Below, one piece after another: positions 1-55,863 of a stretch of 64,000 bases of DNA. The DNA is from Theocolax elegans (taxonomy: Eukaryota; Arthropoda; Insecta; Hymenoptera; Cerocephalidae), in NCBI GenBank assembly GCA_026168455.1, contig CM047426.1, positions 61,858,958 to 61,922,957 of the forward strand, written 5' to 3'. The notes beneath the pieces were generated by a model that was not told where the DNA came from, did not search any database, and saw only the letters and a program-made list of their open reading frames with translations. The translations under genes were made by a program, and so were the position numbers. Each line of letters opens with the position of its first letter. The first letter of the stretch is position 1.

Positions 1-38
1 TCATCAGTAGAGTCCAGGCATCTCGTCTCTAGATATAA
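1..38 (-). ncRNA. hammerhead ribozyme, cut by window edge
   Basis: This is the 5' half of the ribozyme on the minus strand: stem III strand, cleavage-site C (complement of 32), stem I and the CUGAUGA box (complement of 1-7). The rest lies outside the window. Confidence 0.8.
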
Positions 39-535
39 ATGACAGATATAAAAATTATTTGAAAAACCAGCTGTATTCTGACGAGGAAGACATGGGGTAT
101 ATATGCCCTACCGATAGCAAACTTTAATAAGTGCAACATATTAACAGGTAGCCCCCTAACGCACTTACATAGAACTAATGTCTTAATCGTCAGACTATTG
201 TTACATAAGGCATATTCGTGATCCAATGCCATATAATTTTTAAATTTGAATTTTCCAACTATTAGAAAAATTCGTGAATTGATTGCTTTCTTACACTTTA
301 AGTTTTAAGATATATGAATTTATCGATCTTTACAAGCCAAAGAAATATTCTTCACATCTCAAGTAAGGCGGACTGTATTAATACCAGCCACTTAATAAAC
401 CTCACAGGATGAGTGTTTGAAAAAAGACTAAGACAAGTTAGGTCAACAAAAATATAAAATTTAGTTGTTTGTAGTATGAAATTAATAAAACCTTAAAAAG
501 ACGGAAAAAAAAAAAAAAAAAAAAAAAAGAAAAAA

Positions 536-604
536 TTATATTTCGCCCTGAGTATGCCTGGTGGGCTCATCAGTAGAGTCCAGGCATCTCGTCTCTAGAT
601 ATAA
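536..604 (-). ncRNA. hammerhead ribozyme, minus copy
   Basis: Complete 69-nt core on the minus strand, with the same sequence as the plus-strand copies. The predicted cleavage site follows the C complementary to position 598. Confidence 0.88.
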
Positions 605-964
605 ATGACAGATATAAAAATTATTTGAAAAACCAGCTGTATTCTGACGAGGAAGACATGGGGTATATGCCCTACCGATAGCAAACTTTAATAAGTGCAA
701 CATATTAACAGGTAGCCCCCTAACGCACTTACATAGAACTAATGTCTTAATCGTCAGACTATTGTTACATAAGGCATATTCGTGATCCAATGCCATATAA
801 TTTTTAAATTTGAATTTTCCAACTATTAGAAAAATTCGTGAATTGATTGCTTTCTTACACTTTAAGTTTTAAGATATATGAATTTATCGATCTTTACAAG
901 CCAAAGAAATATTCTTCACATCTCAAGTAAGGCGGACTGTATTAATACCAGCCACTTAATAAAC

Positions 965-968
965 CTCA
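965..968. other. inversion junction of the satellite array
   Basis: The CTCA at 965-968 belongs equally to the minus-oriented copy (AAACCTCA, followed by CAGG in intact copies) and to the plus-oriented copy (TACTCAGGGCG). The array flips orientation here with 4 bp of microhomology. Confidence 0.85.
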
Positions 969-1471
969 GGGCGAAATATAATTTTTTCTTTTTTTTTTTT
1001 TTTTTCCGTCTTATTAAGGTTTTATTAATTTCATACTACAAACAACTAAATTTTATATTTTTGTTGACCTAACTTGTCTTAGTCTTTTTTCAAACACTCA
1101 TCCTGTGAGGTTTATTAAGTGGCTGGTATTAATACAGTCCGCCTTACTTGAGATGTGAAGAATATTTCTTTGGCTTGTAAAGATCGATAAATTCATATAT
1201 CTTAAAACTTAAAGTGTAAGAAAGCAATCAATTCACGAATTTTTCTAATAGTTGGAAAATTCAAATTTAAAAATTATATGGCATTGGATCACGAATATGC
1301 CTTATGTAACAATAGTCTGACGATTAAGACATTAGTTCTATGTAAGTGCGTTAGGGGGCTACCTGTTAATATGTTGCACTTATTAAAGTTTGCTATCGGT
1401 AGGGCATATATACCCCATGTCTTCCTCGTCAGAATACAGCTGGTTTTTCAAATAATTTTTATATCTGTCAT

Positions 1472-1540
1472 TTATATCTAGAGACGAGATGCCTGGACTC
1501 TACTGATGAGCCCACCAGGCATACTCAGGGCGAAATATAA
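1472..1540 (+). ncRNA. hammerhead self-cleaving ribozyme (reference copy)
   Basis: All parts of the hammerhead core are visible in order. Stem III 5' strand UUAUAU is 1472-1477 and the cleavage-site C is 1478. Stem I is UAGAG (1479-1483) with CUCUA (1498-1502). The CUGAUGA box is 1503-1509. Stem II is GCCC (1510-1513) with GGGC (1528-1531). GAAA is 1532-1535, and the stem III 3' strand AUAUAA is 1535-1540. All three stems pair perfectly. Stem III is the open stem, so the topology is type III; it is A-U only and probably weak. Loop I UGCCUGG (1490-1496) is perfectly complementary to loop II CCAGGCA (1515-1521), which fits the loop-loop contact natural hammerheads need. Self-cleavage in tandem transcripts would release monomer-length RNA. 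Motif seen directly; activity inferred. Confidence 0.9.
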
Positions 1541-2027
1541 TTTTTTCTTTTTTTTTTTTTTCCGTCTTATTAAGGTTTTATTAATTTCATACTACAAACA
1601 ACTAAATTTTATATTTTTGTTGACCTAACTTGTCTTAGTCTTTTTTCAAACACTCATCCTGTGAGGTTTATTAAGTGGCTGGTATTAATACAGTCCGCCT
1701 TACTTGAGATGTGAAGAATATTTCTTTGGCTTGTAAAGATCGATAAATTCATATATCTTAAAACTTAAAGTGTAAGAAAGCAATAAATTCACGAATTTTT
1801 CTAATAGTTGGAAAATTCAAATTTAAAAATTATATGGCATTGGATCACGAATATGCCTTATGTAACAATAGTCTGACGATTAAGACATTAGTTCTATGTA
1901 AGTGCGTTAGGGGGCTACCTGTTAATATGTTGCACTTATTAAAGTTTGCTATCGGTAGGGCATATATACCCCATGTCTTCCTCGTCAGAATACAGCTGGT
2001 TTTTCAAATAATTTTTATATCTGTCAT

Positions 2028-2096
2028 TTATATCTAGAGACGAGATGCCTGGACTCTACTGATGAGCCCACCAGGCATACTCAGGGCGAAATATAA
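2028..2096 (+). ncRNA. hammerhead ribozyme copy 2
   Basis: Sequence identical to the copy at 1472-1540; predicted cleavage after C2034. Confidence 0.9.
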
Positions 2097-2583
2097 TTTT
2101 TTCTTTTTTTTTTTTTTCCGTCTTATTAAGGTTTTATTAATTTCATACTACAAACAACTAAATTTTATATTTTTGTTGACCTAACTTGTCTTAGTCTTTT
2201 TTCAAACACTCATCCTGTGAGGTTTATTAAGTGGCTGGTATTAATACAGTCCGCCTTACTTGAGATGTGAAGAATATTTCTTTGGCTTGTAAAGATCGAT
2301 AAATTCATATATCTTAAAACTTAAAGTGTAAGAAAGCAATAAATTCACGAATTTTTCTAATAGTTGGAAAATTCAAATTTAAAAATTATATGGCATTGGA
2401 TCACGAATATGCCTTATGTAACAATAGTCTGACGATTAAGACATTAGTTCTATGTAAGTGCGTTAGGGGGCTACCTGTTAATATGTTGCACTTATTAAAG
2501 TTTGCTATCGGTAGGGCATATATACCCCATGTCTTCCTCGTCAGAATACAGCTGGTTTTTCAAATAATTTTTATATCTGTCAT

Positions 2584-2652
2584 TTATATCTAGAGACGAG
2601 ATGCCTGGACTCTACTGATGAGCCCACCAGGCATACTCAGGGCGAAATATAA
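2584..2652 (+). ncRNA. hammerhead ribozyme copy 3
   Basis: Core, stems and loops unchanged; predicted cleavage after C2590. Confidence 0.9.
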
Positions 2653-3138
2653 TTTTTTCTTTTTTTTTTTTTTCCGTCTTATTAAGGTTTTATTAATTTC
2701 ATACTACAAACAACTAAATTTTATATTTTGTTGACCTAACTTGTCTTAGTCTTTTTTCAAACACTCATCCTGTGAGGTTTATTAAGTGGCTGGTATTAAT
2801 ACAGTCCGCCTTACTTGAGATGTGAAGAATATTTCTTTGGCTTGTAAAGATCGATAAATTCATATATCTTAAAACTTAAAGTGTAAGAAAGCAATAAATT
2901 CACGAATTTTTCTAATAGTTGGAAAATTCAAATTTAAAAATTATATGGCATTGGATCACGAATATGCCTTATGTAACAATAGTCTGACGATTAAGACATT
3001 AGTTCTATGTAAGTGCGTTAGGGGGCTACCTGTTAATATGTTGCACTTATTAAAGTTTGCTATCGGTAGGGCATATATACCCCATGTCTTCCTCGTCAGA
3101 ATACAGCTGGTTTTTCAAATAATTTTTATATCTGTCAT

Positions 3139-3207
3139 TTATATCTAGAGACGAGATGCCTGGACTCTACTGATGAGCCCACCAGGCATACTCAGGGCGA
3201 AATATAA
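3139..3207 (+). ncRNA. hammerhead ribozyme copy 4
   Basis: Core unchanged; predicted cleavage after C3145. The preceding monomer has lost one T near 2727. Confidence 0.9.
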
Positions 3208-3695
3208 TTTTTTCTTTTTTTTTTTTTTTCCGTCTTATTAAGGTTTTATTAATTTCATACTACAAACAACTAAATTTTATATTTTTGTTGACCTAACTTG
3301 TCTTAGTCTTTTTTCAAACACTCATCCTGTGAGGTTTATTAAGTGGCTGGTATTAATACAGTCCGCCTTACTTGAGATGTGAAGAATATTTCTTTGGCTT
3401 GTAAAGATCGATAAATTCATATATCTTAAAACTTAAAGTGTAAGAAAGCAATAAATTCACGAATTTTTCTAATAGTTGGAAAATTCAAATTTAAAAATTA
3501 TATGGCATTGGATCACGAATATGCCTTATGTAACAATAGTCTGACGATTAAGACATTAGTTCTATGTAAGTGCGTTAGGGGGCTACCTGTTAATATGTTG
3601 CACTTATTAAAGTTTGCTATCGGTAGGGCATATATACCCCATGTCTTCCTCGTCAGAATACAGCTGGTTTTTCAAATAATTTTTATATCTGTCAT

Positions 3696-3764
3696 TTATA
3701 TCTAGAGACGAGATGCCTGGACTCTACTGATGAGCCCACCAGGCATACTCAGGGCGAAATATAA
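3696..3764 (+). ncRNA. hammerhead ribozyme copy 5
   Basis: Core unchanged; predicted cleavage after C3702. Confidence 0.9.
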
Positions 3765-4251
3765 TTTTTTCTTTTTTTTTTTTTTCCGTCTTATTAAGGT
3801 TTTATTAATTTCATACTACAAACAACTAAATTTTATATTTTTGTTGACCTAACTTGTCTTAGTCTTTTTTCAAACACTCATCCTGTGAGGTTTATTAAGT
3901 GGCTGGTATTAATACAGTCCGCCTTACTTGAGATGTGAAGAATATTTCTTTGGCTTGTAAAGATCGATAAATTCATATATCTTAAAACTTAAAGTGTAAG
4001 AAAGCAATAAATTCACGAATTTTTCTAATAGTTGGAAAATTCAAATTTAAAAATTATATGGCATTGGATCACGAATATGCCTTATGTAACAATAGTCTGA
4101 CGATTAAGACATTAGTTCTATGTAAGTGCGTTAGGGGGCTACCTGTTAATATGTTGCACTTATTAAAGTTTGCTATCGGTAGGGCATATATACCCCATGT
4201 CTTCCTCGTCAGAATACAGCTGGTTTTTCAAATAATTTTTATATCTGTCAT

Positions 4252-4320
4252 TTATATCTAGAGACGAGATGCCTGGACTCTACTGATGAGCCCACCAGGC
4301 ATACTCAGGGCGAAATATAA
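4252..4320 (+). ncRNA. hammerhead ribozyme copy 6
   Basis: Core unchanged; predicted cleavage after C4258. Confidence 0.9.
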
Positions 4321-4808
4321 TTTTTTCTTTTTTTTTTTTTTTCCGTCTTATTAAGGTTTTATTAATTTCATACTACAAACAACTAAATTTTATATTTTTG
4401 TTGACCTAACTTGTCTTAGTCTTTTTTCAAACACTCATCCTGTGAGGTTTATTAAGTGGCTGGTATTAATACAGTCCGCCTTACTTGAGATGTGAAGAAT
4501 ATTTCTTTGGCTTGTAAAGATCGATAAATTCATATATCTTAAAACTTAAAGTGTAAGAAAGCAATAAATTCACGAATTTTTCTAATAGTTGGAAAATTCA
4601 AATTTAAAAATTATATGGCATTGGATCACGAATATGCCTTATGTAACAATAGTCTGACGATTAAGACATTAGTTCTATGTAAGTGCGTTAGGGGGCTACC
4701 TGTTAATATGTTGCACTTATTAAAGTTTGCTATCGGTAGGGCATATATACCCCATGTCTTCCTCGTCAGAATACAGCTGGTTTTTCAAATAATTTTTATA
4801 TCTGTCAT

Positions 4809-4877
4809 TTATATCTAGAGACGAGATGCCTGGACTCTACTGATGAGCCCACCAGGCATACTCAGGGCGAAATATAA
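4809..4877 (+). ncRNA. hammerhead ribozyme copy 7
   Basis: Core unchanged; predicted cleavage after C4815. Confidence 0.9.
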
Positions 4878-5364
4878 TTTTTTCTTTTTTTTTTTTTTCC
4901 GTCTTATTAAGGTTTTATTAATTTCATACTACAAACAACTAAATTTTATATTTTTGTTGACCTAACTTGTCTTAGTCTTTTTTCAAACACTCATCCTGTG
5001 AGGTTTATTAAGTGGCTGGTATTAATACAGTCCGCCTTACTTGAGATGTGAAGAATATTTCTTTGGCTTGTAAAGATCGATAAATTCATATATCTTAAAA
5101 CTTAAAGTGTAAGAAAGCAATCAATTCACGAATTTTTCTAATAGTTGGAAAATTCAAATTTAAAAATTATATGGCATTGGATCACGAATATGCCTTATGT
5201 AACAATAGTCTGACGATTAAGACATTAGTTCTATGTAAGTGCGTTAGGGGGCTACCTGTTAATATGTTGCACTTATTAAAGTTTGCTATCGGTAGGGCAT
5301 ATATACCCCATGTCTTCCTCGTCAGAATACAGCTGGTTTTTCAAATAATTTTTATATCTGTCAT

Positions 5365-5433
5365 TTATATCTAGAGACGAGATGCCTGGACTCTACTGAT
5401 GAGCCCACCAGGCATACTCAGGGCGAAATATAA
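5365..5433 (+). ncRNA. hammerhead ribozyme copy 8
   Basis: Core unchanged; predicted cleavage after C5371. It follows the first C-type body after the run of A-type bodies. Confidence 0.9.
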
Positions 5434-5921
5434 TTTTTTCTTTTTTTTTTTTTTTCCGTCTTATTAAGGTTTTATTAATTTCATACTACAAACAACTAAA
5501 TTTTATATTTTTGTTGACCTAACTTGTCTTAGTCTTTTTTCAAACACTCATCCTGTGAGGTTTATTAAGTGGCTGGTATTAATACAGTCCGCCTTACTTG
5601 AGATGTGAAGAATATTTCTTTGGCTTGTAAAGATCGATAAATTCATATATCTTAAAACTTAAAGTGTAAGAAAGCAATCAATTCACGAATTTTTCTAATA
5701 GTTGGAAAATTCAAATTTAAAAATTATATGGCATTGGATCACGAATATGCCTTATGTAACAATAGTCTGACGATTAAGACATTAGTTCTATGTAAGTGCG
5801 TTAGGGGGCTACCTGTTAATATGTTGCACTTATTAAAGTTTGCTATCGGTAGGGCATATATACCCCATGTCTTCCTCGTCAGAATACAGCTGGTTTTTCA
5901 AATAATTTTTATATCTGTCAT

Positions 5922-5990
5922 TTATATCTAGAGACGAGATGCCTGGACTCTACTGATGAGCCCACCAGGCATACTCAGGGCGAAATATAA
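5922..5990 (+). ncRNA. hammerhead ribozyme copy 9
   Basis: Core unchanged; predicted cleavage after C5928. Confidence 0.9.
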
Positions 5991-6478
5991 TTTTTTCTTT
6001 TTTTTTTTTTTTCCGTCTTATTAAGGTTTTATTAATTTCATACTACAAACAACTAAATTTTATATTTTTGTTGACCTAACTTGTCTTAGTCTTTTTTCAA
6101 ACACTCATCCTGTGAGGTTTATTAAGTGGCTGGTATTAATACAGTCCGCCTTACTTGAGATGTGAAGAATATTTCTTTGGCTTGTAAAGATCGATAAATT
6201 CATATATCTTAAAACTTAAAGTGTAAGAAAGCAATCAATTCACGAATTTTTCTAATAGTTGGAAAATTCAAATTTAAAAATTATATGGCATTGGATCACG
6301 AATATGCCTTATGTAACAATAGTCTGACGATTAAGACATTAGTTCTATGTAAGTGCGTTAGGGGGCTACCTGTTAATATGTTGCACTTATTAAAGTTTGC
6401 TATCGGTAGGGCATATATACCCCATGTCTTCCTCGTCAGAATACAGCTGGTTTTTCAAATAATTTTTATATCTGTCAT

Positions 6479-6547
6479 TTATATCTAGAGACGAGATGCC
6501 TGGACTCTACTGATGAGCCCACCAGGCATACTCAGGGCGAAATATAA
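6479..6547 (+). ncRNA. hammerhead ribozyme copy 10
   Basis: Core unchanged; predicted cleavage after C6485. Confidence 0.9.
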
Positions 6548-7033
6548 TTTTTTCTTTTTTTTTTTTTCCGTCTTATTAAGGTTTTATTAATTTCATACTA
6601 CAAACAACTAAATTTTATATTTTTGTTGACCTAACTTGTCTTAGTCTTTTTTCAAACACTCATCCTGTGAGGTTTATTAAGTGGCTGGTATTAATACAGT
6701 CCGCCTTACTTGAGATGTGAAGAATATTTCTTTGGCTTGTAAAGATCGATAAATTCATATATCTTAAAACTTAAAGTGTAAGAAAGCAATCAATTCACGA
6801 ATTTTTCTAATAGTTGGAAAATTCAAATTTAAAAATTATATGGCATTGGATCACGAATATGCCTTATGTAACAATAGTCTGACGATTAAGACATTAGTTC
6901 TATGTAAGTGCGTTAGGGGGCTACCTGTTAATATGTTGCACTTATTAAAGTTTGCTATCGGTAGGGCATATATACCCCATGTCTTCCTCGTCAGAATACA
7001 GCTGGTTTTTCAAATAATTTTTATATCTGTCAT

Positions 7034-7102
7034 TTATATCTAGAGACGAGATGCCTGGACTCTACTGATGAGCCCACCAGGCATACTCAGGGCGAAATAT
7101 AA
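7034..7102 (+). ncRNA. hammerhead ribozyme copy 11
   Basis: Core unchanged; predicted cleavage after C7040. Confidence 0.9.
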
Positions 7103-7588
7103 TTTTTTCTTTTTTTTTTTTTCCGTCTTATTAAGGTTTTATTAATTTCATACTACAAACAACTAAATTTTATATTTTTGTTGACCTAACTTGTCTTAGT
7201 CTTTTTTCAAACACTCATCCTGTGAGGTTTATTAAGTGGCTGGTATTAATACAGTCCGCCTTACTTGAGATGTGAAGAATATTTCTTTGGCTTGTAAAGA
7301 TCGATAAATTCATATATCTTAAAACTTAAAGTGTAAGAAAGCAATCAATTCACGAATTTTTCTAATAGTTGGAAAATTCAAATTTAAAAATTATATGGCA
7401 TTGGATCACGAATATGCCTTATGTAACAATAGTCTGACGATTAAGACATTAGTTCTATGTAAGTGCGTTAGGGGGCTACCTGTTAATATGTTGCACTTAT
7501 TAAAGTTTGCTATCGGTAGGGCATATATACCCCATGTCTTCCTCGTCAGAATACAGCTGGTTTTTCAAATAATTTTTATATCTGTCAT

Positions 7589-7657
7589 TTATATCTAGAG
7601 ACGAGATGCCTGGACTCTACTGATGAGCCCACCAGGCATACTCAGGGCGAAATATAA
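7589..7657 (+). ncRNA. hammerhead ribozyme copy 12 (last)
   Basis: Core unchanged; predicted cleavage after C7595. The final partial monomer ends before another ribozyme would form. Confidence 0.9.
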
Positions 7658-8027
7658 TTTTTTCTTTTTTTTTTTTTTTTCCGTCTTATTAAGGTTTTAT
7701 TAATTTCATACTACAAACAACTAAATTTTATATTTTTGTTGACCTAACTTGTCTTAGTCTTTTTTCAAACACTCATCCTGTGAGGTTTATTAAGTGGCTG
7801 GTATTAATACAGTCCGCCTTACTTGAGATGTGAAGAATATTTCTTTGGCTTGTAAAGATCGATAAATTCATATATCTTAAAACTTAAAGTGTAAGAAAGC
7901 AATCAATTCACGAATTTTTCTAATAGTTGGAAAATTCAAATTTAAAAAAAGAATATATCTCCTCTCGCCCATTTTAGTGACTCAAAATATTTATGTTTTA
8001 CCGTAGAAAATATAATCGACACCGCTA

Positions 8028-8065
8028 GGCACGCTCCCGCGAATGAGCAAACGCGGGAGTGTGCC
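8028..8065. other. GC-rich hairpin, unit 1
   Basis: GGCACGCTCCCGCG (8028-8041) pairs with CGCGGGAGTGTGCC (8052-8065) with one wobble position around a 10-nt loop. It stands out strongly from the surrounding AT-rich DNA. Confidence 0.85.
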
Positions 8066-8243
8066 TCGTAGTGTTCTCTGGTCTTTGATTTCAGCTGAAT
8101 CGGAATTACAAACGAATTATAAATTTTTTCCTTGGCTTAAATGTACATTGTGACTAATGTCATTGTATACATATGTTTATTTGCCTAATTAAGTTATTAA
8201 ATATATTTTATTTTTACTACAGAAAATATATTGGACACTGCGC

Positions 8244-8281
8244 GGCACGCTCCCGCGAATAAGCAAACGCGGGAGCGTGCC
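8244..8281. other. GC-rich hairpin, unit 2
   Basis: A perfect 14-bp stem, GGCACGCTCCCGCG (8244-8257) with CGCGGGAGCGTGCC (8268-8281), and loop AATAAGCAAA. Outside it, CACT and AGTG also pair across a small internal loop, making a precursor-like stem of about 22 bp. It could be a small-RNA precursor, a cruciform or a transposon end. Confidence 0.85.
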
Positions 8282-8599
8282 TCGTAGTGTTCTGGTCTTC
8301 GATTTCAGGTAAATCATAATTATAAACGATTTATATATTTGTTCCTAGGCTTGGATGTAACATGTGACTAATGCCATCATATACACAAGTTTATTTGCCC
8401 ATTTTATTTATTATATGTATTTTATTTTACACATATTACACATGTGTTTATTTGCCCATTTTATTTTTAAAATGTATGTCATTTGTACTATTTGAATATA
8501 AATTAACTCCCTATACAATAACATGTGTATTATATTGCAATACTCATGGGTTCCCCCACTACACGCGTTCCGAATTCCCTATTCTCGATATACGCAATC

Positions 8600-10575: not shown

Positions 10576-10759
10576 CATATGGACTTAATTGGACCTATAT
10601 ATTACATAGACAAATTCAGAAATATCGGGTCCCAGATGGTCTAAACAGGTGCATAGTGGAAAGCAAAAATTAAGAGTATCAAATGGTCTAATCCACTGAA
10701 TAGTGAAATGCAGAAGGTATGCGTACTAATTGGTACTATTCATAGCTTGTGTTCAAAGG

Positions 10760-11121
10760 TTGAAGCCAAATGAATACCACGAGTACTTGCATAACGAAAT
10801 GCAAGGAATTTATTTAGCAAAGATAAAAAGGTTGAACCAAAACGAATACAACGAGTACTTACATAGCGAAATGTAAGGAATGTATTCAGTAAAGGTAACA
10901 GGTTGAAGCAAAATGAATACGACGAGTACTTTCATAGCGAAATGCAAGGAATGTATTCAATAAAGATAAAAGGATAAAGCAAAACGAATACGACGAGTAC
11001 TTGTATAGCGAAATGCAAGGAATGTATTCAGTATCGGTAAAAAAAGGTTGAAGCAAAATAAATACGACGAGTACTTACATAGCGAAATGTAAGGAATGTA
11101 TTTAGTAAAGGTAAAAGGCTC
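10760..11121 (+). repeat. five 72-bp tandem repeats with a conserved hairpin
   Basis: Units start near 10760, 10832, 10903, 10974 and 11048. Each contains GAATAC(G/A)ACGAGTACTT, a small hairpin with loop A(G/A)CGAA, then GGAATGTATTCAGTAAAGGTAA. Hairpin arms are CTTGCAT/ATGCAAG in unit 1 (10786-10805) and CTTACAT/ATGTAAG in units 2 (10858-10877) and 5 (11074-11093). Units 3 and 4 each carry a change in one arm only. Relatives of the hairpin occur just outside, for example CTGCAT AGAGAA ATGCAG near 11151. Confidence 0.85.
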
Positions 11122-24327: not shown

Positions 24328-25767
24328 AATCGTGCGCGCCCAGCTGGCAGTACCGATATAGCCCGCGCACGATGTCAATACAGGCAGAGATAACGGTCTC
24401 TTTCATCGTGTTTTATCGGAGAAGTGTGGGTTGTGTGATACGGTGTGGGTGCGGACAGGCTTCCCCCACACGACCCAACACGCCGAGCAAAGCCGTACGC
24501 CTCCACCACTCCAGATTCCGTCCACGGAAAAGATGGAAGATCGGGACCAGTTCGCCCAAAGGAGTTAGAGAGAAAGAGAGATTGACGGGGAGATTTAGTG
24601 CGGTCGTTCCCGCCGTTTAAACGTATTTCGAGCGGTGTCTCGTGAATACAAAGGTGAGTGGTGCACCACGTTGGACCCGCGTGTCCCGTTGATAGTTTCC
24701 CGATTTACCTGGTACGGTCCAGGAGACGAAGCGTTCCTCATCTTTTTCCCCTCTCGTGATAAATCCCGCCTGGGTAGACAGGTCGGTGGTTGGCGGGAGT
24801 CACTTCACGAGAGAAGGCGCGCGTGACGTAGGCAGCTTCTACGTCAGAGCTCACTACGTCAGATATACATACGTCACACGGTGTGACGTATAGCCATCAG
24901 GTTAAGCAGCCGATCATTCCCGGATCGGATGCTTATTTCTCGTCCGTTAATAAGTGTTAACGAGTTGTTTTCGCGATGAGCTCGGGGGTAATTGTGATTG
25001 TTTATTTAATAAATTGACTCGGCGAGACGATCTTTCTCGCCGATTAACATAATATATCGATTGTTGATAACGTTTTTATCGGGCAATTTTGGGCATAGGG
25101 CCCAACACACAATATTAAAGTCAAACACCTCGTTTGACGTTGTTAACGGCACTGCACGGGAGTCAAAGTGATTCCCGGCCACATCGTGGGACTGTACACT
25201 TAAGGTTGGTAAGTTGGGACAGATTGGGCCTAACCGGGGGCCTTGTGTTCCCCAGTACCCACCCCGTGACGATATATATAACAGGGGGGCTTCGCGCACC
25301 AACCCCTATTTTAAGTTTCGAAATAGGTTTTTTGTAATTAATTTATTTAAAATAATGTTTTAAATAGTATTATGTTTTCACTACCATGGACACCTTAGAA
25401 ATTAAATAGATTCACACAACACCTTGGAGATACTATTCTAGTGCATTGGGTTTTATACCAAAAATTTAATTTTTTTTAAATACAATTATAATTTATAAAT
25501 AAAAGTTTTTACCTAAATTTAGTGTAATGAAATCAGAATAAAAATAATAAAAATAATAGAGACATATTAAGTGTTAACTGTAAATTTTAAACTATATGAA
25601 TTCTTATAAAGCTTAAATTTATATTTTAATAATTATAAATGTTAATGAAAAATTAACTTACCAAAAATAGTAAAGTGCATATACTTACTAAATTGTAGTA
25701 TTTAGTAACTACTTGTTAATATTTTGGATTATTTTAAACGGATCTAAATAGAACTTCACCTCCTAAA
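24328..25767 (+). repeat. module A, copy 1 (GC-rich leader/LTR-like)
   Basis: First copy of a module repeated at 27254-28695 (period 2926). GC-rich to about 25330, then AT-rich. It contains a donor-like AATACAAAG|GTGAGTGG near 24651 and five TGACGTA/TACGTCA sites at 24825-24892. It also has AATAAA near 25009, a hairpin CGGCGAGA...TCTCGCCG at about 25020-25044, and ACAGGGGGGCTTCGCGCACC near 25281. These fit LTR or retroelement leader DNA, but no gene is readable. The 109-163-codon frames in it look spurious. Confidence 0.6.
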
Positions 25768-27255
25768 ATTAATTTATTTAATGACGAAGGATCATCGCCA
25801 AAGGTTCTATGTCATTAATATTTTGTACTTTTAGAGTAATAAAACTTTCTTCTTAAATAAAGCAATTTTTGTATTAATTTTAAAGAACTATTTATAACAT
25901 TTTAGCGGCATATAAATAAAAACCTGTTTCTTCCATTTCTTCCGTAATTCGTAATTTGCACCCTCTTTCAAAATTTGCGTTATAATCCATAATTATATCA
26001 GTGTTGCCAGATAGAGGTGTTTTTTCTTTGTTGCACTCACAAAGTATGACCTCATTTACATTAGATAATGGAGGACAGAAAAACCCTGAATGGTAACTCT
26101 GAATTATATCCAATTTATTTTTTCCTTTAGTAACAGAGCCCATATATTTATTTTGATCATTATAAACAAATTCATTCCTTAAATAACCTTCTGTTTCTAA
26201 TAAATACATACTTGTTTATTTAAAATATTGTTTTCTATAAATATACATAATCTACTCACTTGTATATCCATACAATTTTGAAATATTAATTTAAAAAATA
26301 TTTAAATTAAATGCTCCTTAATTAATAATTTTTGAAAAACTTTTCAAATGTAATTCATATTTTATATTGCCACTGTTAATATTTGAATTTTCTTTTGCCA
26401 TTACTGTTTATAATAGTATTATCTTAAAAATGCAATAATTAATGTATTTAATTTTTAACCCATTGTATATATTATGACGAATTTAATAAATATTAAATAT
26501 TTGATAATTCGTCATGTTCTCTCTCTCTCTCTCTGTCTAGCCACACACTATCGCAGACCTTCGGTCAAGGTAAAAGTAGGGAAAGAGAGAGAGTTTTCGG
26601 TTCGTAAGTGCGAGAGCACTTAGACTAAACTCAATCGTCGAGAGATTAAACTCAACCGTCGAGAGACTAAACTCAACCGTGGAGAGACAATTCTCAGCCT
26701 TTTAGAGAGATAGACTTCAGCCGTTGCTTAGCCGTTACTTAACCGTAATACTGCATGGAGCCTCTCGGTTAATTTTTTATTGATTATTTTGGTGCTGTGA
26801 CTGGTTTTTATTTATTTGTTGGTGACCAGTGGTTTATTTATCTGGCGTCAACGCAGTCCAGGACATTCGAGGGTGCGTCTACGCAGATCTTCAAGTTCTC
26901 TTGTTTTCGTTCGTGAGCAACGCACTGTAAGTGTCAGTTCGACAGAGTCTCTCTCTCTCGCTTTCTCTCTTTATTCCTCGCGTATATATCGACCTGCGTT
27001 TCGCGCGCTGCGACGCGTCTGTATTACTTTTTCCGAATACATTTATTTTAGTTACTAATTAAATATTGCATTGCTGCTTATTTAGTTGTTTACCCCCTTT
27101 TCTCACGTTTCGCTAAGTAAAGATTACCGCCGCCTCCGCCTATACGGCTTATTATAGTCGTATTATTACTGAGCGGCCGATCGTGTAAATGAGACTATTG
27201 TTTTAACGGTTCTGAATTGTTATTATCTTATATATTTATTATTAAAAATAGCAAA
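25768..27255 (+). repeat. module B, copy 1 (retroelement LTR/leader-like)
   Basis: Copies also at 28696-30172 and 31279-32769. The left part, 26000-26110, is homologous to the LTR at 40640-41394 in opposite orientation (phrase GTTGCCAGATAGAGGTGTTT). The middle has a 10-bp palindrome pair at 26474-26483 and 26506-26515, CT-rich runs, and about three 21-bp GAGACTAAACTCAACCGTCGA repeats near 26621-26684. Then TTTTGGTGCTGTGACTGG at about 26789 resembles a primer-binding region of BEL/Pao-type elements. No long open frame survives. The minus frame 26209-25892 overlaps the LTR homology and is probably fortuitous. Confidence 0.6.
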
Positions 27256-28695
27256 TCGTGCGCGCCCAGCTGGCAGTACCGATATAGCCCGCGCACGATG
27301 TCAATACAGGCAGAGATAACGGTCTCTTTCATCGTGTTTTATCGGAGAAGTGTGGGTTGTGTGATACGGTGTGGGTGCGGACAGGCTTCCCCCACACGAC
27401 CCAACACGCCGAGCAAAGCCGTACGCCTCCACCACTCCAGATTCCGTCCACGGAAAAGATGGAAGATCGGGACCAGTTCGCCCAAAGGAGTTAGAGAGAA
27501 AGAGAGATTGACGGGGAGATTTAGTGCGGTCGTTCCCGCCGTTTAAACGTATTTCGAGCGGTGTCTCGTGAATACAAAGGTGAGTGGTGCACCACGTTGG
27601 ACCCGCGTGTCCCGTTGATAGTTTCCCGATTTACCTGGTACGGTCCAGGAGACGAAGCGTTCCTCATCTTTTTCCCCTCTCGTGATAAATCCCGCCTGGG
27701 TAGACAGGTCGGTGGTTGGCGGGAGTCACTTCACGAGAGAAGGCGCGCGTGACGTAGGCAGCTTCTACGTCAGAGCTCACTACGTCAGATATACATACGT
27801 CACACGGTGTGACGTATAGCCATCAGGTTAAGCAGCCGATCATTCCCGGATCGGATGCTTATTTCTCGTCCGTTAATAAGTGTTAACGAGTTGTTTTCGC
27901 GATGAGCTCGGGGGTAATTGTGATTGTTTATTTAATAAATTGACTCGGCGAGACGAATCTTTCTCGCCGATTAACATAATATATCGATTGTTGATAACGT
28001 TTTTATCGGGCACTTTTGGGCATAGGGCCCAACACACAATATTAAAGTCAAACACCTCGTTTGACGTTGTTAACGGCACTGCACGGGAGTCAAAGTGATT
28101 CCCGGCCACATCGTGGGACTGTACACTTAAGGTTGGTAAGTTGGGACAGATTGGGCCTAACCGGGGGCCTTGTGTTCCCCAGTACCCACCCCGTGACGAT
28201 ATATATAACAGGGGGGCTTTCGCGCACCAACCCCTATTTTAAGTTTCGAAATAGGTTTTTTTGTAATTAAATTTATTTAAAATAATGTTTTAAATAGTAT
28301 TATGTTTTCACTACCATGGACACCTTAGAAATTAAATAGATTCACACAACACCTTGGAGATACTATTCTAGTGCATTGGGTTTTATACCAAAAATTTAAT
28401 TTTTTTTAAATACAATATAATTTATAAATAAAAGTTTTTACCTAATTTAGTGTAATGAAATCAGAATAAAAATAATAAAACTAATAGAGACATATTAAGT
28501 GTTAACTGTAAATTTTAAACTATATGAATTCTTATAAAGCTTAAATTTATATTTTAATAATTATAAATGTTAATGAAAATTAACTTACCAAAAATAGTAA
28601 AGTGCATATACTTACTAAATTGTAGTATTTAGTAACTACTTGTTAATATTTTGGATTATTTTAAAACGGATCTAAATAGAACTTCACCTCCTAAA
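27254..28695 (+). repeat. module A, copy 2
   Basis: Matches 24328-25767. Near-identical in the GC-rich half, with one-base indels growing common from about 28400 onwards. Starts at the shared word AATCG that forms the duplication joint. Confidence 0.9.
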
Positions 28696-30172
28696 ATTAA
28701 TTTATTTAAGACGAAGGATCATCGCCCAAAGGTTCTATGTCATAATATTTTGTACTTTTAGAGTAATAAACTTTCTTCTTAAATAAAGCAATTTTTGTAT
28801 TAATTTTAAGAACTATTTATAACATTTTAGCGGCATATAAATAAAAACCTGTTTCTTCCATTTCTTCCGTAATTCGTAATTTGCACCCTCTTTCAAAATT
28901 TGCGTTATAATCCATAATTATATCAGTGTTGCCAGATAGAGGTGTTTTTTTCTTTGTTGCACTCACAAAGTATGACCTCAATTTACATTAGATAATGGAG
29001 GACAGAAAACCTGAATGGTAACTCGGAATATATCCAATTTATTTTTTCCTTAGTAACAGAGCCCATATATTTATTTTGATCATTACTAAACAAATTCATT
29101 CCTTAAATAACCTTCTGTTTCTAATAACATACATACTTGTTTATTTAAAATATGTTTCTATAAATATACATAATTAACTCACTTGTATATCCATACAATT
29201 TTTAGAAATATTAATTTAAAAATATTTAATTAAATGCTCCTTAATTAATAATTTTTGAAAAACTTTTCAAATGTAATTCATTTTTATATTGCCACTGTTA
29301 ATATTTGAATTTTCTTTTGCCATTACTGTTTATAATAGTATATCTTAAAAATGCAATAATTAATGGTATTTAATTTTTACACCATTGTATATATTATGAC
29401 GAATTTAATAAATATTAATATTGATAATTCGTATGTTCTCTCTCTCTCTCTCTGTTAGCCACACACTATCGCAGACCTTCGGTCAAGGTAAAAGTAGGGA
29501 AAGAGAGAGAGTTTTTCGGTTCGTAAGTGCGAGAGCACTTAGGAACTAAACTCAATCGTCGAGAGATTAAACTCAACCCGTCGAGAGAACTAAACTCAAC
29601 CGTGGAGAGACAATTCTCAGCCTTTTAGAGAGATAGACTTCAGCCGTTGCTAGCCGTTACTAACCGTAATACTGCATGGAGCCTCTCGGTTAATTTTTTT
29701 ATGATTATTTTGGTGCTGTGACTGGTTTTTATTTATTGTTGGTGACAGTGGTTTATTTATCTGGCGTCAACGCAGTCCAGGACATTCGAGGGTGCGTCTA
29801 CGCAGATCTTCAAGTTCTCTTGTTTTCGTTCGTGAGCAACGCACTGTAAGTGTCAGTTCGACAGAGTCTCTCTCTCTCGCTTTCTCTCTTTATTCCTCGC
29901 GTATATCGACCCTGCGTTTCGCGCGCTGCGACGCGTCTGTATTACTTTTTCCGAAATAAATTTATTTAGTTACTAATTAAATATGCATTGCTGCTTTTTA
30001 GTTGTTTACCCCCTTTTCTCACGTTTCGCCTAAGTAAAGATTACCGCGCCTCCGCCTATACGGCGTTATATAGTCGTATTATTACTGAGCGGCCGATCGT
30101 GTAAATGAGACTATTGTTTTTAACGGTTCTGAATTGTTATTATCTATTATATTTATTCTTAAAATAGCAAAT
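28696..30172 (+). repeat. module B, copy 2 (indel-rich)
   Basis: Same order as copy 1 but with dozens of single-base gains and losses, for example TAAGACGAAGG for TAATGACGAAGG near 28708, ATCGCCCAAAGG near 28725 and GGTGACAGTGG near 29741. Copies 1 and 3 agree with each other at these places. Confidence 0.9.
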
Positions 30173-31278
30173 CCGTTACAATATATCACATATGGATATT
30201 TGGATAAGTGTATGTATACTGATTAATATTCATTTTATCTTCGGAAAAGATTGCATCTGTACTTTAAAGCATTATATTAAATTTTAGGTCCGTTTTATTA
30301 TTGAGTAAACATTTAAAAATTTTATGAGTTTTATCAGGAATGAGTAAACTAATACACATTCTTTCAAGTTATATTTACAACTTTTTTTGCGCTCGGAAAA
30401 AATACATATATTATCTATTCTTGAAAAGACAATTTTAAAATATATATATATATATATATGGGTCGTTCTCTGTGACATCGAAGATGAAAAAAAATAAATA
30501 TTGCTATAACTGTGGGAATATGTTTTAGAGGTATCCAGTAGTTCTCCGAATTTTTCAGATTTTTTCTGGGCCATTATTTAACTTACAGAGAGTCAAAGTT
30601 GACATTTTAGCACTTTTTGCATTATATGCCCATTTTCATGAATTTTTAGCTCCCAGGGGATGCATTTTTCACTAAAAACATAAGTATGACTTTTTTTGTA
30701 AAATTTTCCGAACTTTTCATTAAAATACTTTTAAAGACATAAATGTATGCTGTCACACTCTTGGAAGCCATTTAAACCTCAATAGTGAAAATCAGCAATT
30801 CTGCTCCGGACTCTGGTAACCTAATACTGTCTAAAAGATGTCTTTTTATAGTCAGAAACTGCCTAAAAATTTCCAGAGTGGGTCTAAATCATTAAGATCA
30901 CTTATGGTCAAAATATCCGGGAAAAGTGCCCGAAATATTAATAGAAATGTATATTTTTGCCTTATAACGATGAATCTATTAGCATGATCATTGCAAAAAA
31001 ATTTGTGCACTTACCTTGGTGTGGTAGAAAAGTATCTTCACTTGTTTCAGTATCCATCTAATCCCCTGTAAGCTGCTAAAAATACAAATATTATTATATA
31101 AATGTAAAAAATTAATTTTTAAACATTTATAATGCTAAATTTTTAGTTTTACATCCCTTACAAGAATTATGATACTAATCTGAAGGATTACTATAAATAT
31201 ATAAACATCATTATTACAATAACTAAATATACGTATTTAATACAAAAGATATATAAATAAATCGGATATATAATTATA
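30173..31278 (+). repeat. module C, copy 1 (flank plus fold-back arm)
   Basis: 30173-30459 is a flank ending in (TA)n. 30460-31215 is one arm of the fold-back element that is complete at 33063-34713. 31216-31278 is part of its spacer. The opposite arm is missing: module B copy 3 begins directly, so this is a truncated copy made by tandem duplication. Confidence 0.85.
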
Positions 31279-32769
31279 ATTAATTTATTTAATGACGAAG
31301 GATCATCGCCAAAGGTTCTATGTCATTAATATTTTGTACTTTTAGAGTAATAAAACTTTCTTCTTAAATAAAGCAATTTTTGTATTAATTTTAAAGAACT
31401 ATTTATAACATTTTAGCGGCATATAAAATAAAAACCTGTTTCTTCCATTTCTTCCGTTAATTCGTAATTTGCACCTCTTTCAAAATTTGCGTTATAATCC
31501 ATAATTATATCAGTGTTGCCAGATAGAGGTGTTTTTTTCTTTGTTGGCACTCACAAAGTATGACCTCATTTACATTAGATAATGGAGGACAGAAAAACCC
31601 TGAATGGTAACTCTGAATTATATCCAATTTATTTTTTTCCTTTAGTAACAGAGCCCATATATTTATTTTGATCATTATAAACAAATTCATTCCTTAAATA
31701 ACCTTCTGTTTCTAATAAACATACTTGTTTATTTAAAATATTGTTTTCTATAAATATACATTAATCTACTCACTTGTATATCCATACAATTTTGAAATAT
31801 TAATTTAAAAAATATTTAAATTAAATGCTCCTTAATTAATAATTTTTGAAAAACTTTTCAAATGTAATTCATATTTTATATTGCCACTGTTATATTTGAA
31901 TTTCTTTTGCCATTACGTTTATAATAGTATTATCTTAAAAATGCAATAATTAATGTATTTAATTTTTAACCCATTGTATATATTATGACGAATTTAATAA
32001 ATATTAAATATTTGATAATTCGTCATGTTCTCTCTCTCTCTCTCTGTCTAGCCACACACTATCGCAGACCTTCGGTCAAGGTAAAAGTAGGGAAAGAGAG
32101 AGAGTTTTCGGTTCGTAAGTGCGAGAGCACTTAGACTAAACTCAATCGTCGAGAGATTAAACTCAACCGTCGAGAGACTAAACTCAACCGTGGAGAGACA
32201 ATTCTCAGCCTTTTAGAGAGATAGACTTCAGCCGTTGCTTAGCCGTTACTTAACCGTAATACTGCATGGAGCCTCTCGGTTAATTTTTTATTGATTATTT
32301 TGGTGCTGTGACTGGTTTTTATTTATTTGTTGGTGACCAGTGGTTTATTTATCTGGCGTCAACGCAGTCCAGGACATTCGAGGGTGCGTCTACGCAGATC
32401 TTCAAGTTCTCTTGTTTTCGTTCGCGAGCAACGCACTGTAAGTGTCAGTTCGACAGAGTCTCTCTCTCTCGCTTTCTCTCTTTATTCCTCGCGTATATAT
32501 CGACCTGCGTTTCGCGCGCTGCGACGCCGTCTGTATTACTTTTTCCGAATACATTTATTTTAGTTACTAATTAAATATTGCATTGCTGCTTATTTAGTTG
32601 TTTACCCCCTTTTCTCACGTTTCGCTAAGTAAAGATTACCGCCGCCTCCGCCTATACGGCTTATTATAGTCGTATTATTACTGAGCGGCCGATCGTGTAA
32701 ATGAGACTATTGTTTTAACGGTTCTGAATTGTTATTATCTTATTATATTTATTATTAAAAATAGCAAAT
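31279..32769 (+). repeat. module B, copy 3
   Basis: Nearly identical to copy 1 apart from scattered one-base changes, such as GTTCGCGAGC at 32420 and an extra C near 32527. It joins the fold-back spacer at a short ATAAT/ATTAAT microhomology. Confidence 0.9.
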
Positions 32770-33062
32770 CCGTTACAATATATCACATATGGATATTTGG
32801 ATAAGTGTATGTTATACTTGATTAATATTTATTTTATCTTCGGAAAAGATTGCATCTGTACTTAAAGCATTATATTAAATTTTAGGTCCGTTATTATTAT
32901 TGAGTAAACATTTAAAAATTTTATGAGTTTTATCAGGAATGAGTAAACTAATACACATTCTTTCAAGTTATATTTACAACTTTTTTTGCGCTCGGAAAAA
33001 ATACATATATTATCTATTCTTGAAAAGACAATTTTAAAATATATATATATATATATATATAT
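32770..33062 (+). repeat. module C, copy 2 flank with (TA)n
   Basis: Repeats 30173-30459, ending in a longer TA run at 33039-33062. Confidence 0.85.
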
Positions 33063-34713
33063 GGGTCGTTCTCTGTGACATCGAAGATGAAAAAAATAAA
33101 TATTGCTATAACTGTGGGAATATGTTTTAGAGGTATCCAGTAGTTCTCCTGAATTTTTCAGATTTTTTCTGGGCCATTATTTTAACTTACAGAGAGTCAA
33201 AGTTGACATTTTAGCACTTTTTGCATTATATGCCCATTTTCATGAATTTTAGCTCCCAGGGGATGCATTTTTCACTAAAAACATAAGTATGACTTTTTTT
33301 GTAAAATTTTCCGAACTTTTCATTAAAAATACTTTTAAAGACATAAATGTATGCTGTCACACTCTTGGAAGCCATTTAAACCTCAAATAGTGAAAATCAG
33401 CAATTCTGCTCCGGACTCTGGTAACCTAATACTGTCTAAAAGATGTCTTTTTATAGTCAGAAACTGCCTAAAAATTTCCAGAGTGGGTCTAAATCATTAA
33501 GATCACTTATGGTCAAAATATCCGGGAAAAGTGCCCGAAATATTAATAGAAATGTATATTTGTTGCCTTATAACGATGAATCTATTAGCATGATCATTGC
33601 AAAAAATTTGTGCACTTACCTTGGTGTGGTAGAAAAGTATCTTCACTTGTTTCAGTATCCATCTAATCCCCTGTAAGCTGCTAAAAATACAAATATTATT
33701 ATATAAATGTAAAAAATTAATTTTTTAAACATTTATAATGCTAAATTTTTAGTTTTACATCCCTTACAAGAATTATGATACTAATCTGAAGGATTACTAT
33801 AAATATATAAACATCATTATTACAATAACTAAATATACGTATTTAATACAAAAGATATATAAATAAATCGGATATATAATTATAATGAATAATATGATAA
33901 CGTGACAGTGACAAGTTTGTGAAATCTAAACAATGTATTGCTGAATAATAATAATAATAATGTTGATACATTTATAGTAATCCTTCAGATTAGTATTATA
34001 ATTCTTGTAAGGGATGTAAAACTAAAAATTCAGCATTATAAATGTTTAAAAATTAATTTTTTACATTTATATAATAATATTTGTATTTTTTAGCAGCTTA
34101 CAGGGAATTAGATGGATACTGAAACAAGTGGAGATACTTTTCTACCACTCCAAGGTAAGTGCACTAATTTTTTTGCAATGATCATGCTACTAGATTCATC
34201 GTTATAAGGAAACAAATATACATTTCTATTAATATTTCGGGCACTTTTCCCGGATATTTTGACCATAAGTGATCTTAATGATTTAGACCCACTCTGGAAA
34301 TTTTTAGGCAGTTTCTGACTATAAAAAGACATCTTTTAGACAGTATTAGGTTACCAGAGTCCGGAGCAGAATTGCTGATTTTCACTATTTAAGGTTTAAA
34401 TGGCTTACAAGAGTGTGACAGCATACATTTATGTCTTTAAAAGTATTTTTAATGAAAAGTTCGGAAAATTTTACAAAAAAAGTCATACTTATGTTTTTAG
34501 TGAAAAATGCATCCCCTGGGAGCTAAAAATTCCTGAAAATGGGCATATAATGCAAAAAAGTGCTAAAATGTCAACTTTGACTCTCTGTAACTTAAAATAA
34601 TGGCCCAGAAAAATCTGAAAAAATTCAGGAGAACTACTGGATACCTCTAAAACATATTCCCACAGTTATAGCAATATTTATTTTTTTCATCTTCGATGTC
34701 GCAGAGAACCACC
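33063..34713. mobile_element. fold-back element with about 755-bp inverted arms
   Basis: The arm at 33063-33822 (starting GGGTCGTTCTCTGTGACATC) is inverted at 33952-34713 (ending GATGTCGCAGAGAACCACC), with a spacer of about 130 bp. TA repeats flank the left side and ATATATA the right, so a TA target is plausible. Each arm has a 74-77-codon frame starting MSFYSQKLPKNFQSGSKSLR (33443-33676 plus; 34332-34108 minus), differing near its end. No transposase is seen. This is a non-autonomous DNA element, or the ends of a larger one that lost its interior. Confidence 0.7.
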
Positions 34714-41394: not shown

Positions 41395-41685
41395 TCCTCC
41401 CCCCTTAAAGGCGTTTGCCGTCCTCGTCAAAAGATGGCACATTTTATTCCGCAAGGTAAGAAAGAGGGCTAAGTATAAAAATATGAAAGAGGTATCTTTT
41501 GGTCGATTTGATCTTTGGTCAGTTTTTGGTCAATTTATTTTTGGTCAATTTATTTTAATTAAGTTATAAATCCTCTTTCTTCCTTTAACAATATAAGTAC
41601 TACTCTTACTCTTATACGAAGATTTGATCCTTATAACTAATTAACTGTGGCTTTTTCTAAAAATATGAAAAAAAAATATAAAAAG

Positions 41686-47790: not shown

Positions 47791-47884
47791 TCCGTAAGAG
47801 TAAAGGTAGAAATAAGAATGTGTAAAGTGTAGACGTGTCATTGTAAGAGAAATAGCTGGAAAACTGGAAAAAAAAATAATAAAT

Positions 47885-49340: not shown

Positions 49341-49364
49341 GATTATTAGTAGGTCTGATAATGG

Positions 49365-50564: not shown

Positions 50565-50588
50565 CCAATTTAAGGGCTCGTGATCGGC

Positions 50589-54675: not shown

Positions 54676-54692
54676 GGTTATCGGCCCACCAC
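54676..54692 (+). other. copia primer-binding site
   Basis: GGTTATCGGCCCACCAC lies directly after the 5' LTR. The GGTTATCGGCCC word resembles the initiator-Met-tRNA-derived primer sites of copia elements. Confidence 0.6.
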
Positions 54693-55860: not shown

Positions 55861-55863
55861 GAT

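What the first reader, a model, noticed from the sequence alone, without database searches (positions are those of the whole stretch)
969..7948. Satellite DNA in which every complete monomer encodes a hammerhead ribozyme
Each complete 556-bp monomer has a perfect hammerhead: CUGAUGA, GAAA, a cleavage-site C in UAUC, and three correctly placed, fully paired stems. The 69-nt motif looks unchanged in all 12 plus copies and in the complete minus copy at 536-604. Hammerheads in satellite DNA are established for schistosomes, newts and cave crickets, and as retrozymes in plants and animals. This 556-bp family, with a type III topology and a T tract directly after the ribozyme, may be new. Tandem transcripts would process themselves to monomer RNA that could be circularised. 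Stem III is only six A-U pairs, so cleavage may depend on neighbouring monomers forming a double hammerhead.
Basis: partly seen in the sequence, partly recalled or inferred. Interest (0 to 1): 0.92.

Follow-up and report, generated by a model that had tools for sequence, protein, structure and literature searches.

The report
Satellite DNA encoding self-cutting hammerhead RNAs
A stretch of what is probably insect DNA repeats the same 556-letter unit head to tail, and each junction of full units encodes a complete hammerhead ribozyme (an RNA expected to cut itself) of a type better known from plants than from animal repeats, with two RNA loops that match each other over eight letters.

Summary
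The plus array (969-7948; 11 complete monomers of 555-557 bp plus two partial ones) carries 12 identical 69-nt hammerheads, with a 13th on the minus strand at 536-604. The core is complete, with stems I/II/III of 5/4/6 pairs in type III order. No equal match arose in 172 Mb of Markov-random sequence. Rfam's best family is Hammerhead_3 at 24.5 bits, below its gathering score of 48.5.

Two things change the interpretation. First, the plus monomers are almost identical (one substitution, otherwise T-run length), so the "unchanged" ribozyme is not evidence of selection. These pairs could form a kissing pseudoknot that aids cleavage, or a competing hairpin that blocks it.

Closest known: pseudoknotted type III hammerheads of termite/toad delta-like RNAs and dipteran genomes, and animal type I retrozyme repeats. 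I call it a new variant of a known kind. Host, expression and catalysis are untested; the genome search did not complete.

The parts
969..7948 (+). Plus-orientation satellite array: partial monomer 969-1478, 11 complete monomers 1479-7595, partial monomer 7596-7948
1479..2034 (+). Reference monomer, cut at the predicted hammerhead cleavage sites (556 nt, 31.8% GC, longest stop-free frame 91 codons)
1472..1540 (+). Hammerhead 1 (type III): stem III UUAUAU/AUAUAA, stem I UAGAG/CUCUA, CUGAUGA, stem II GCCC/GGGC, GAAA; predicted cleavage after C1478
1489..1496 (+). Loop 1 segment AUGCCUGG of hammerhead 1, complementary to loop 2
   Evidence: sequence
1515..1522 (+). Loop 2 segment CCAGGCAU of hammerhead 1, complementary to loop 1 over 8 bp
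   Evidence: sequence
2028..2096 (+). Hammerhead 2, predicted cleavage after C2034
2584..2652 (+). Hammerhead 3, predicted cleavage after C2590
3139..3207 (+). Hammerhead 4, predicted cleavage after C3145
3696..3764 (+). Hammerhead 5, predicted cleavage after C3702
4252..4320 (+). Hammerhead 6, predicted cleavage after C4258
4809..4877 (+). Hammerhead 7, predicted cleavage after C4815
5365..5433 (+). Hammerhead 8, predicted cleavage after C5371
5922..5990 (+). Hammerhead 9, predicted cleavage after C5928
6479..6547 (+). Hammerhead 10, predicted cleavage after C6485
7034..7102 (+). Hammerhead 11, predicted cleavage after C7040
7589..7657 (+). Hammerhead 12, predicted cleavage after C7595
1..968 (-). 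Minus-orientation part of the same satellite, head to head with the plus array; runs off the left edge of the window
536..604 (-). Complete hammerhead on the minus strand, predicted cleavage after C at 598
1..38 (-). Hammerhead cut by the left edge of the window (stem III 5' strand, stem I and CUGAUGA present)
965..968 (.). Inversion junction; CTCA is shared by both orientations (4-nt microhomology)
1541..1561 (+). T tract directly after ribozyme 1 (T6 C T14). In the 13 plus tracts the second run is T13 to T17, in the complete minus copy T24

Best explanation
[quoted passage not shown] Loops 1 and 2 are expected to dock by an 8-bp Watson-Crick kissing pseudoknot that holds stems I and II in parallel. 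Host RNA ligase could then close the monomers into circles, as reported for animal and plant retrozymes. Shown here: the sequence, architecture, tandem arrangement, loop complementarity and its improbability by chance. Inferred from the hammerhead family: catalysis and cleavage site. Inferred by analogy only: transcription, circularisation and any retrotransposition. The present array looks shaped by DNA-level amplification and rearrangement rather than by fresh RNA insertion, because its right end and the inversion lie away from the cleavage site (the left end is outside the window).
For: Complete core and stems of 5/4/6 pairs in 13 of 13 complete copies; 0 matches of that quality in 172 Mb of random sequence; Hammerhead_3 the only Rfam family listed at E<=10 in 1-8100; AUC cleavage triplet and GAAAU fit the RUH and GAAAY rules quoted in PMC7936874 (passages). 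Loop complementarity of 8 bp: 74 of 200,000 composition-preserving loop shuffles reach 8 or more. About 40% of hammerheads are predicted to use such pseudoknots, with examples of all three types, and shortening one from six to four pairs cut the rate about 20-fold, further shortening over 100-fold (PMC3088659, passages). No long reading frame (91 codons at most). Junction at monomer position about 46-50/184 and right end at about 351, not at the cleavage site.
Against: No expression, cleavage or circular RNA data. The Rfam score is only half the gathering score. Nested folding puts the loop-loop pairs into a hairpin that excludes stems I and II: 69-nt MFE -19.4 against -7.1 kcal/mol for the hammerhead without pseudoknot; in the circular 556-mer those eight pairs have probability 0.947-1.0 and stems I-III 0.0. 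The model cannot score pseudoknots. The unit RNA is not strongly structured: linear 556-mer z = -1.75, 5 of 100 shuffles fold as well; circle -117.1 against -106.3 +/- 6.6 for 20 mononucleotide shuffles; 59% of bases paired, below the 70% and more that PMC4918200 gives for retrozyme RNAs. No related sequence could be compared, so there is no covariation support. The T tract would stop RNA polymerase III after each ribozyme, so monomer release needs another polymerase (inference).
Confidence: 0.66

Rival explanations
1. The loop 1/loop 2 complementarity is a brake: most nascent or circular RNA folds into the blocked hairpin, single hammerheads cleave poorly, and efficient cutting needs two neighbouring copies (double hammerhead) or a co-transcriptional window. 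The satellite would then yield mostly multimers or protected circles.
For: The blocked hairpin is in the predicted minimum of the 69-mer, 101-mer, linear 556-mer and circular 556-mer and appears once loop 2 is transcribed. satRPV, one of two earlier type III examples with a stable loop 1-loop 2 pseudoknot named in PMC7936874 (passages), is classed as a bad catalyst as a single hammerhead (PMC6466107 section 7), and a paper title in the reference list of PMC3185516 says it needs a double hammerhead and an alternative structure. Plant retrozyme circles are predicted to hold the hammerhead blocked (PMC4918200 section 10).
Against: The same 8 pairs can coexist with stems I and II as a kissing complex; -7.1 for the stems plus -12.8 for the 8-bp duplex roughly equals the blocked fold before any docking penalty, so the two states cannot be ranked by these tools. 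Stem I forms before loop 2 is made. PMC6466107 attributes the bad catalysts to a very short stem III, which is not the case here. Most metazoan retrozyme circles are predicted to leave the hammerhead free (PMC7229834 Discussion).
Confidence: 0.3
2. The ribozyme is real but incidental: an inert satellite amplified at DNA level from a copy of a hammerhead-bearing retroelement, no longer transcribed.
For: Near-identity of the plus monomers points to recent DNA amplification or homogenisation, and one A/C variant splits the array into a block of six and the rest; right end and inversion are unrelated to the cleavage site, with 4-nt microhomology at the inversion; no dispersed monomers seen in the rest of the window.
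Against: An intact ribozyme in 13 of 13 copies needs only a recent intact founder, so the data neither favour nor exclude it; the animal hammerhead repeats examined in PMC7229834 are abundantly transcribed.
Confidence: 0.3
3. Chance resemblance to a hammerhead, multiplied by satellite amplification.
For: Only one independent sequence, since copies are identical; Rfam score below gathering.
Against: 0 of 172 Mb random at stems 5/4/6; fully canonical core; additional 8-bp loop pairing.
Confidence: 0.03
4. The array is the DNA trace of an infectious or delta-like circular RNA.
For: The closest described ribozyme architecture includes hammerheads of termite and toad delta-like RNAs (PMC7936874, passages).
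Against: No hammerhead on the opposite strand of the monomer by the descriptors used (type III; types I and II), longest stop-free frame 91 codons, ~556 nt instead of ~1,500-1,700, long homopolymer tract.
Confidence: 0.04

Closest known systems
Atypical type III hammerheads of termite and toad delta-like RNAs and of termite and dipteran genomes (PMC7936874, passages)
   Same: Type III; first stem of helix I is 5 bp; Watson-Crick pairing between the helix I loop (GCC element) and the helix II loop (GGC element); found in insect genomes
   Different: Theirs carry an extra ~20-nt hairpin on helix I, a 6-bp helix II and a 4-nt pairing consensus (GCCR/YGGC), and those of termite genomes were isolated motifs; ours has a 14-nt open loop, a 4-bp helix II, 8 loop pairs and a tandem 556-bp satellite. 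Their structure-based searches found no further ones in hymenopterans, hemipterans and a cockroach.
Metazoan non-LTR retrozymes with type I hammerheads (PMC7229834)
   Same: Non-coding, AT-rich tandem repeats with one hammerhead per unit, expected to release unit-length RNA
   Different: Type III instead of type I; 555-557 bp instead of ~170-400; T tract; ribozyme blocked rather than free in the predicted circle; no expression data here
[quoted passage not shown]
   Same: Type III hammerhead; unit of several hundred nt; predicted blocked ribozyme in the circle
   Different: No primer-binding site found (5 recalled motifs, best 4 mismatches); long tandem array rather than one to four copies; 59% of bases paired instead of over 70%; transposons around it look animal (inference)
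pDo500 satellite of Dolichopoda cave crickets (PMC2837043)
   Same: ~500-bp satellite monomer, insect, hammerhead in each repeat, in vitro self-cleavage reported for pDo500
[quoted passage not shown]
   Same: Type III hammerhead with loop 1-loop 2 pseudoknot
   Different: Plant virus satellite RNA, not genomic satellite DNA

Membership tests
Hammerhead ribozyme, type III (RF00008) | Conserved core CUGANGA...GAAA with cleavage-site NUH | tested here: met
   13 of 13 complete copies
Hammerhead ribozyme, type III (RF00008) | Three stems, helix III open-ended | tested here: met
   5/4/6 pairs, order III-I-II-III
Hammerhead ribozyme, type III (RF00008) | Covariance-model score at or above gathering | tested here: not met
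   24.5 of 48.5 bits, E=0.11; 0 matches at gathering. This is a curated threshold rather than a chemical requirement, but by Rfam's own rule it is not listed; its 14-nt loops are long for this 54-position model
Hammerhead ribozyme, type III (RF00008) | Self-cleavage | not testable with these tools
   needs in vitro transcription
Loop 1-loop 2 pseudoknot hammerhead | Complementary segments in loops 1 and 2 | tested here: met
   8 contiguous Watson-Crick pairs, 74 of 200,000 shuffles reach 8 or more
Loop 1-loop 2 pseudoknot hammerhead | Pairing supported by covariation or mutation | not tested
   all copies identical, no relatives found
Metazoan non-LTR retrozyme | Short non-coding tandem repeat, low GC, one hammerhead per unit, no LTR/PBS | tested here: met
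   31.8% GC, no frame over 91 codons, no PBS-like site among 5 motifs
Metazoan non-LTR retrozyme | Type I hammerhead, unit ~170-400 nt | tested here: not met
   type III, 555-557 nt
Metazoan non-LTR retrozyme | Highly self-paired unit RNA (over 70% of bases, PMC4918200) | tested here: not met
   59% paired linear and circular; z = -1.75, 5 of 100 shuffles fold as well
Metazoan non-LTR retrozyme | Linear and circular unit RNA; target-site duplications | not testable with these tools
   no RNA data; left end of array outside the window
Plant LTR retrozyme | Type III hammerhead in LTRs flanking a core with PBS and PPT | tested here: not met
Delta-like circular RNA | Ribozymes on both polarities and delta-antigen frame | tested here: not met
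   no hammerhead on the other strand of the monomer; no frame over 91 codons
Dolichopoda pDo500 satellite | Sequence homology to pDo500 | not tested
   pDo500 sequence not held here

The most novel reading that the evidence does not exclude
An animal counterpart of the plant type III retrozymes: a satellite whose units are cut out as ~556-nt circular RNAs by a type III hammerhead that uses one 8-bp loop-loop helix both as the docking pseudoknot of the active ribozyme and as the core of the inactive hairpin, so the same pairs act as an on/off switch that lets circles escape re-cutting. It would link genomic insect repeats with the type III, pseudoknotted hammerheads of delta-like animal RNAs.
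Probability: 0.2. Interest if true: 0.78.

Novelty: new variant of a known kind. Interest (0 to 1): 0.5.

Why it matters
A review states that type I hammerheads are typical of metazoan genomes and type III mostly of plants and the circular RNAs that infect them (PMC7761336, passages), and PMC3088659 says the vast majority of repeat-associated hammerheads in eukaryotes are type I (passages). A long tandem satellite with a type III ribozyme and pairing loops in a probable insect would go against that division. It offers a possible genomic source for the type III ribozymes of delta-like RNAs, and a simple test of whether a perfect loop-loop helix helps or blocks a hammerhead.

Tried and rejected
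Rejected: chance; a type I or II hammerhead anywhere in the window (none at stem minima 3/3/2 and 3/3/3 for stems I/II/III); a hammerhead on the opposite strand of the monomer (none); other Rfam families in 1-8100 (only Hammerhead_3 at E<=10); Pol III promoter (no B box within 3 mismatches on either strand; A-box-like sites with 2 mismatches, three on plus and two on minus); LTR-retrozyme PBS; dispersed monomers in the rest of the window (only matches of 27 bp or less with E>=0.017; the list was cut at 30 rows and E<=1).

A 35-base monomer pattern in viral contigs: 0. A 16-base core pattern: 1 locus, judged by eye on 130 printed bases as not a hammerhead and not run through the descriptor. Distant blastn of the monomer in phages and plasmids: no match. 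None of these is an animal genome collection, so this says little about insects.

Literature: the searches listed no paper that, by title and start of abstract, describes a tandem animal satellite with a type III hammerhead. Lists were capped (15 of 140, 20 of 45, 15 of 21, 15 of 29), and papers outside the open-access library would be missed. PMC7761336 does mention elements with type III hammerheads in insects, citing older work I could not read.

Full report
WHAT IS THERE. The left 7.9 kb of the window is a satellite array in two orientations. Bases 1-968 hold minus-oriented copies that run off the window; 969-7948 hold plus-oriented copies: a partial unit, 11 complete units of 555-557 bp counted between predicted cleavage sites, and a partial unit. 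Every complete junction between plus units carries the same 69-nt motif, 12 in all, and a 13th is complete on the minus strand at 536-604; another on the minus strand is cut by the window edge.

THE RIBOZYME. In 5'-3' order: stem III strand UUAUAU, cleavage-site C, stem I UAGAG, loop 1 ACGAGAUGCCUGGA, stem I CUCUA, CUGAUGA, stem II GCCC, loop 2 ACCAGGCAUACUCA, stem II GGGC, GAA, stem III strand AUAUAA. This is the type III order, with an AUC cleavage triplet and GAAAU, matching the RUH and GAAAY rules given in PMC7936874 (passages). A descriptor with these stem lengths had 0 matches in 172 Mb of first-order Markov sequence made from the window's base steps; 9 matches reached 4/4/4 and 165 reached 3/3/3. 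Rfam gives Hammerhead_3 alone among families at E<=10 in 1-8100, but at 24.5 bits against a gathering score of 48.5, and nothing at gathering in the whole window. So this is a hammerhead by architecture that Rfam's curated threshold would not list; the long loops are a likely reason (inference).

Loop 1 contains AUGCCUGG and loop 2 contains CCAGGCAU, eight contiguous Watson-Crick pairs; with a one-base bulge three more pairs (GAG/CUC) can follow. In 200,000 composition-preserving shuffles of both loops, 74 reached eight or more. Perreault et al. 2011 (PMC3088659, abstract and passages) predict loop 1-loop 2 pseudoknots in about 40% of hammerheads, with examples of all three types, and report that shortening one in a type II ribozyme lowers the rate about 20 to over 100 fold. 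De la Pena et al. 2021 (PMC7936874, passages) describe pseudoknotted, atypical type III hammerheads in termite and toad delta-like RNAs and in termite and dipteran genomes, and report that structure-based searches found no more in hymenopterans, hemipterans and a cockroach. The loop pairs here are more than the four-letter consensus given there, and the layout is symmetric: five unpaired bases on the 5' side and one on the 3' side in loop 1, the reverse in loop 2 (sequence).

HELP OR BRAKE. Nested folding cannot show a kissing complex. It places the same loop pairs in a hairpin that excludes stems I and II: 69-nt MFE -19.4 kcal/mol against -7.1 for the hammerhead without pseudoknot. In the circular 556-mer the eight loop pairs have probability 0.947-1.0 and stems I, II and III 0.0. 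Adding the 8-bp duplex (-12.8) to the hammerhead stems gives about -19.9 before any docking penalty, so the two states are close and these tools cannot rank them (inference). Prefix folding shows stem I first, then the blocked hairpin once loop 2 is out. satRPV, a plant satellite RNA with a loop 1-loop 2 pseudoknot, is classed as a bad catalyst as a single hammerhead, though that source blames a very short stem III (PMC6466107 section 7); a cited paper title says it needs a double hammerhead and an alternative structure (reference list of PMC3185516). I also recall, from no call, older work on an attenuating tertiary structure in that RNA. Both roles remain open; I favour pseudoknot-assisted cleavage, with the brake as the main rival. 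Stem III of six pairs is not by itself a reason to expect a double hammerhead: PLMVd, with a long enough stem III, is said not to need one, and type III motifs are said to cleave well as monomers (PMC6155905 passages).

INVARIANCE IS NOT SELECTION. In the alignment of the 11 complete and the partial copies, plus units differ by one A/C substitution, one single-T indel and T-tract length. With the whole unit this uniform, an unchanged 69-nt motif says nothing about constraint. The A variant occupies six successive units and the C variant the rest, which suggests block-wise DNA duplication (inference). The minus units carry their own differences (T run of 24 against 13-17 in the plus units; one substitution, and a 2-bp deletion in one unit), which argues that the inversion is not a mirrored assembly copy of the adjacent plus units, though only reads can settle this. 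The inversion joins monomer position about 184 (minus) to about 46-50 (plus) with CTCA shared; compared directly, the 968-bp left arm matches 1106-2065 at 98.6%, leaving a spacer of 137 bp. The right end is at about position 351. None of these is the cleavage site, so the array's known borders look like DNA rearrangement, not RNA insertion (inference).

TRANSCRIPTION AND FOLD OF THE UNIT. Nothing here shows transcription. The T tract (T6 C T13-17 in 13 plus tracts) directly after the ribozyme would end an RNA polymerase III transcript (established knowledge; inference for this site), giving RNAs with one ribozyme near the 3' end and no unit release; release of ~556-nt RNA thus implies another polymerase reading through. 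No B box was found within 3 mismatches. The unit RNA is only moderately structured: linear z = -1.75 with 5 of 100 shuffles folding as well, circle -117.1 against -106.3 +/- 6.6 for 20 mononucleotide shuffles, and 59% of bases paired, below the over 70% reported for retrozyme RNAs in PMC4918200. This counts against a selected retrozyme-like circle.

CONTEXT AND HOST. Of ten frames scanned against Pfam, seven matched: reverse transcriptase in two adjacent frames near 13-14.2 kb (one below the curated cut-off), an integrase core fragment (below the cut-off), an RNase H domain and a Baculo_F-type envelope-like frame between 46.5 and 51 kb, and a copia-type gag plus an SH3-like polymerase domain at 55.9-59.6 kb; three gave nothing. 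A Baculo_F-type envelope in an LTR element suggests an insect (inference); the host was not identified because the protein search was off and the genome search did not complete.

WHERE IT FITS. Animal tandem repeats with hammerheads are known, expressed as linear and circular RNA of ~170-400 nt, and of type I, with most circles predicted to leave the ribozyme free (PMC7229834: abstract, first third of Results, Discussion). Plant LTR retrozymes have mostly type III (PMC4918200: passages and one section). Perreault et al. state that the vast majority of repeat-associated hammerheads in eukaryotes are type I. The cricket satellite pDo500 is nearest in size and, if the host is an insect, in host group (PMC2837043, parts 1-2 of 5), but PMC7761336 cites it under type I (passages). 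This array therefore departs from animal retrozymes in type, length and predicted fold, and from plant retrozymes in layout; it works like both if transcribed and active. I rate it a new variant of a known kind.

Noticed in passing
1-2065: Head-to-head satellite copies form a long inverted repeat (arms of about 968 bp, 98.6% alike, spacer 137 bp); transcripts across it would fold into long double-stranded RNA.
   Followed up: partly
38900-44470: Direct tandem duplication of 2,786 bp at 99.96% identity: a very recent duplication or an assembly effect.
   Followed up: no
24328-33890: Tandem copies of a unit of roughly 2.6-2.9 kb at about 96-98% identity, containing short 21-22-bp repeats.
   Followed up: no
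62644-64000: Diverged short tandem array with 59-bp and 118-bp periods, running to the end of the window.
   Followed up: no
10755-11118: 71-bp tandem repeat, about 5 copies.
   Followed up: no
7967-8428: Two 81%-identical copies (~247 bp) of a short element just right of the array, each containing a GC-rich palindrome-like stretch.
   Followed up: no
54471-61341: Copia-type element (gag and SH3-like domains) bounded by two 205-bp direct repeats at 98% identity.
   Followed up: no
46537-50957: LTR-retroelement pieces on the minus strand: Baculo_F-type envelope-like frame, integrase core fragment (below the curated cut-off), RNase H domain.
   Followed up: partly
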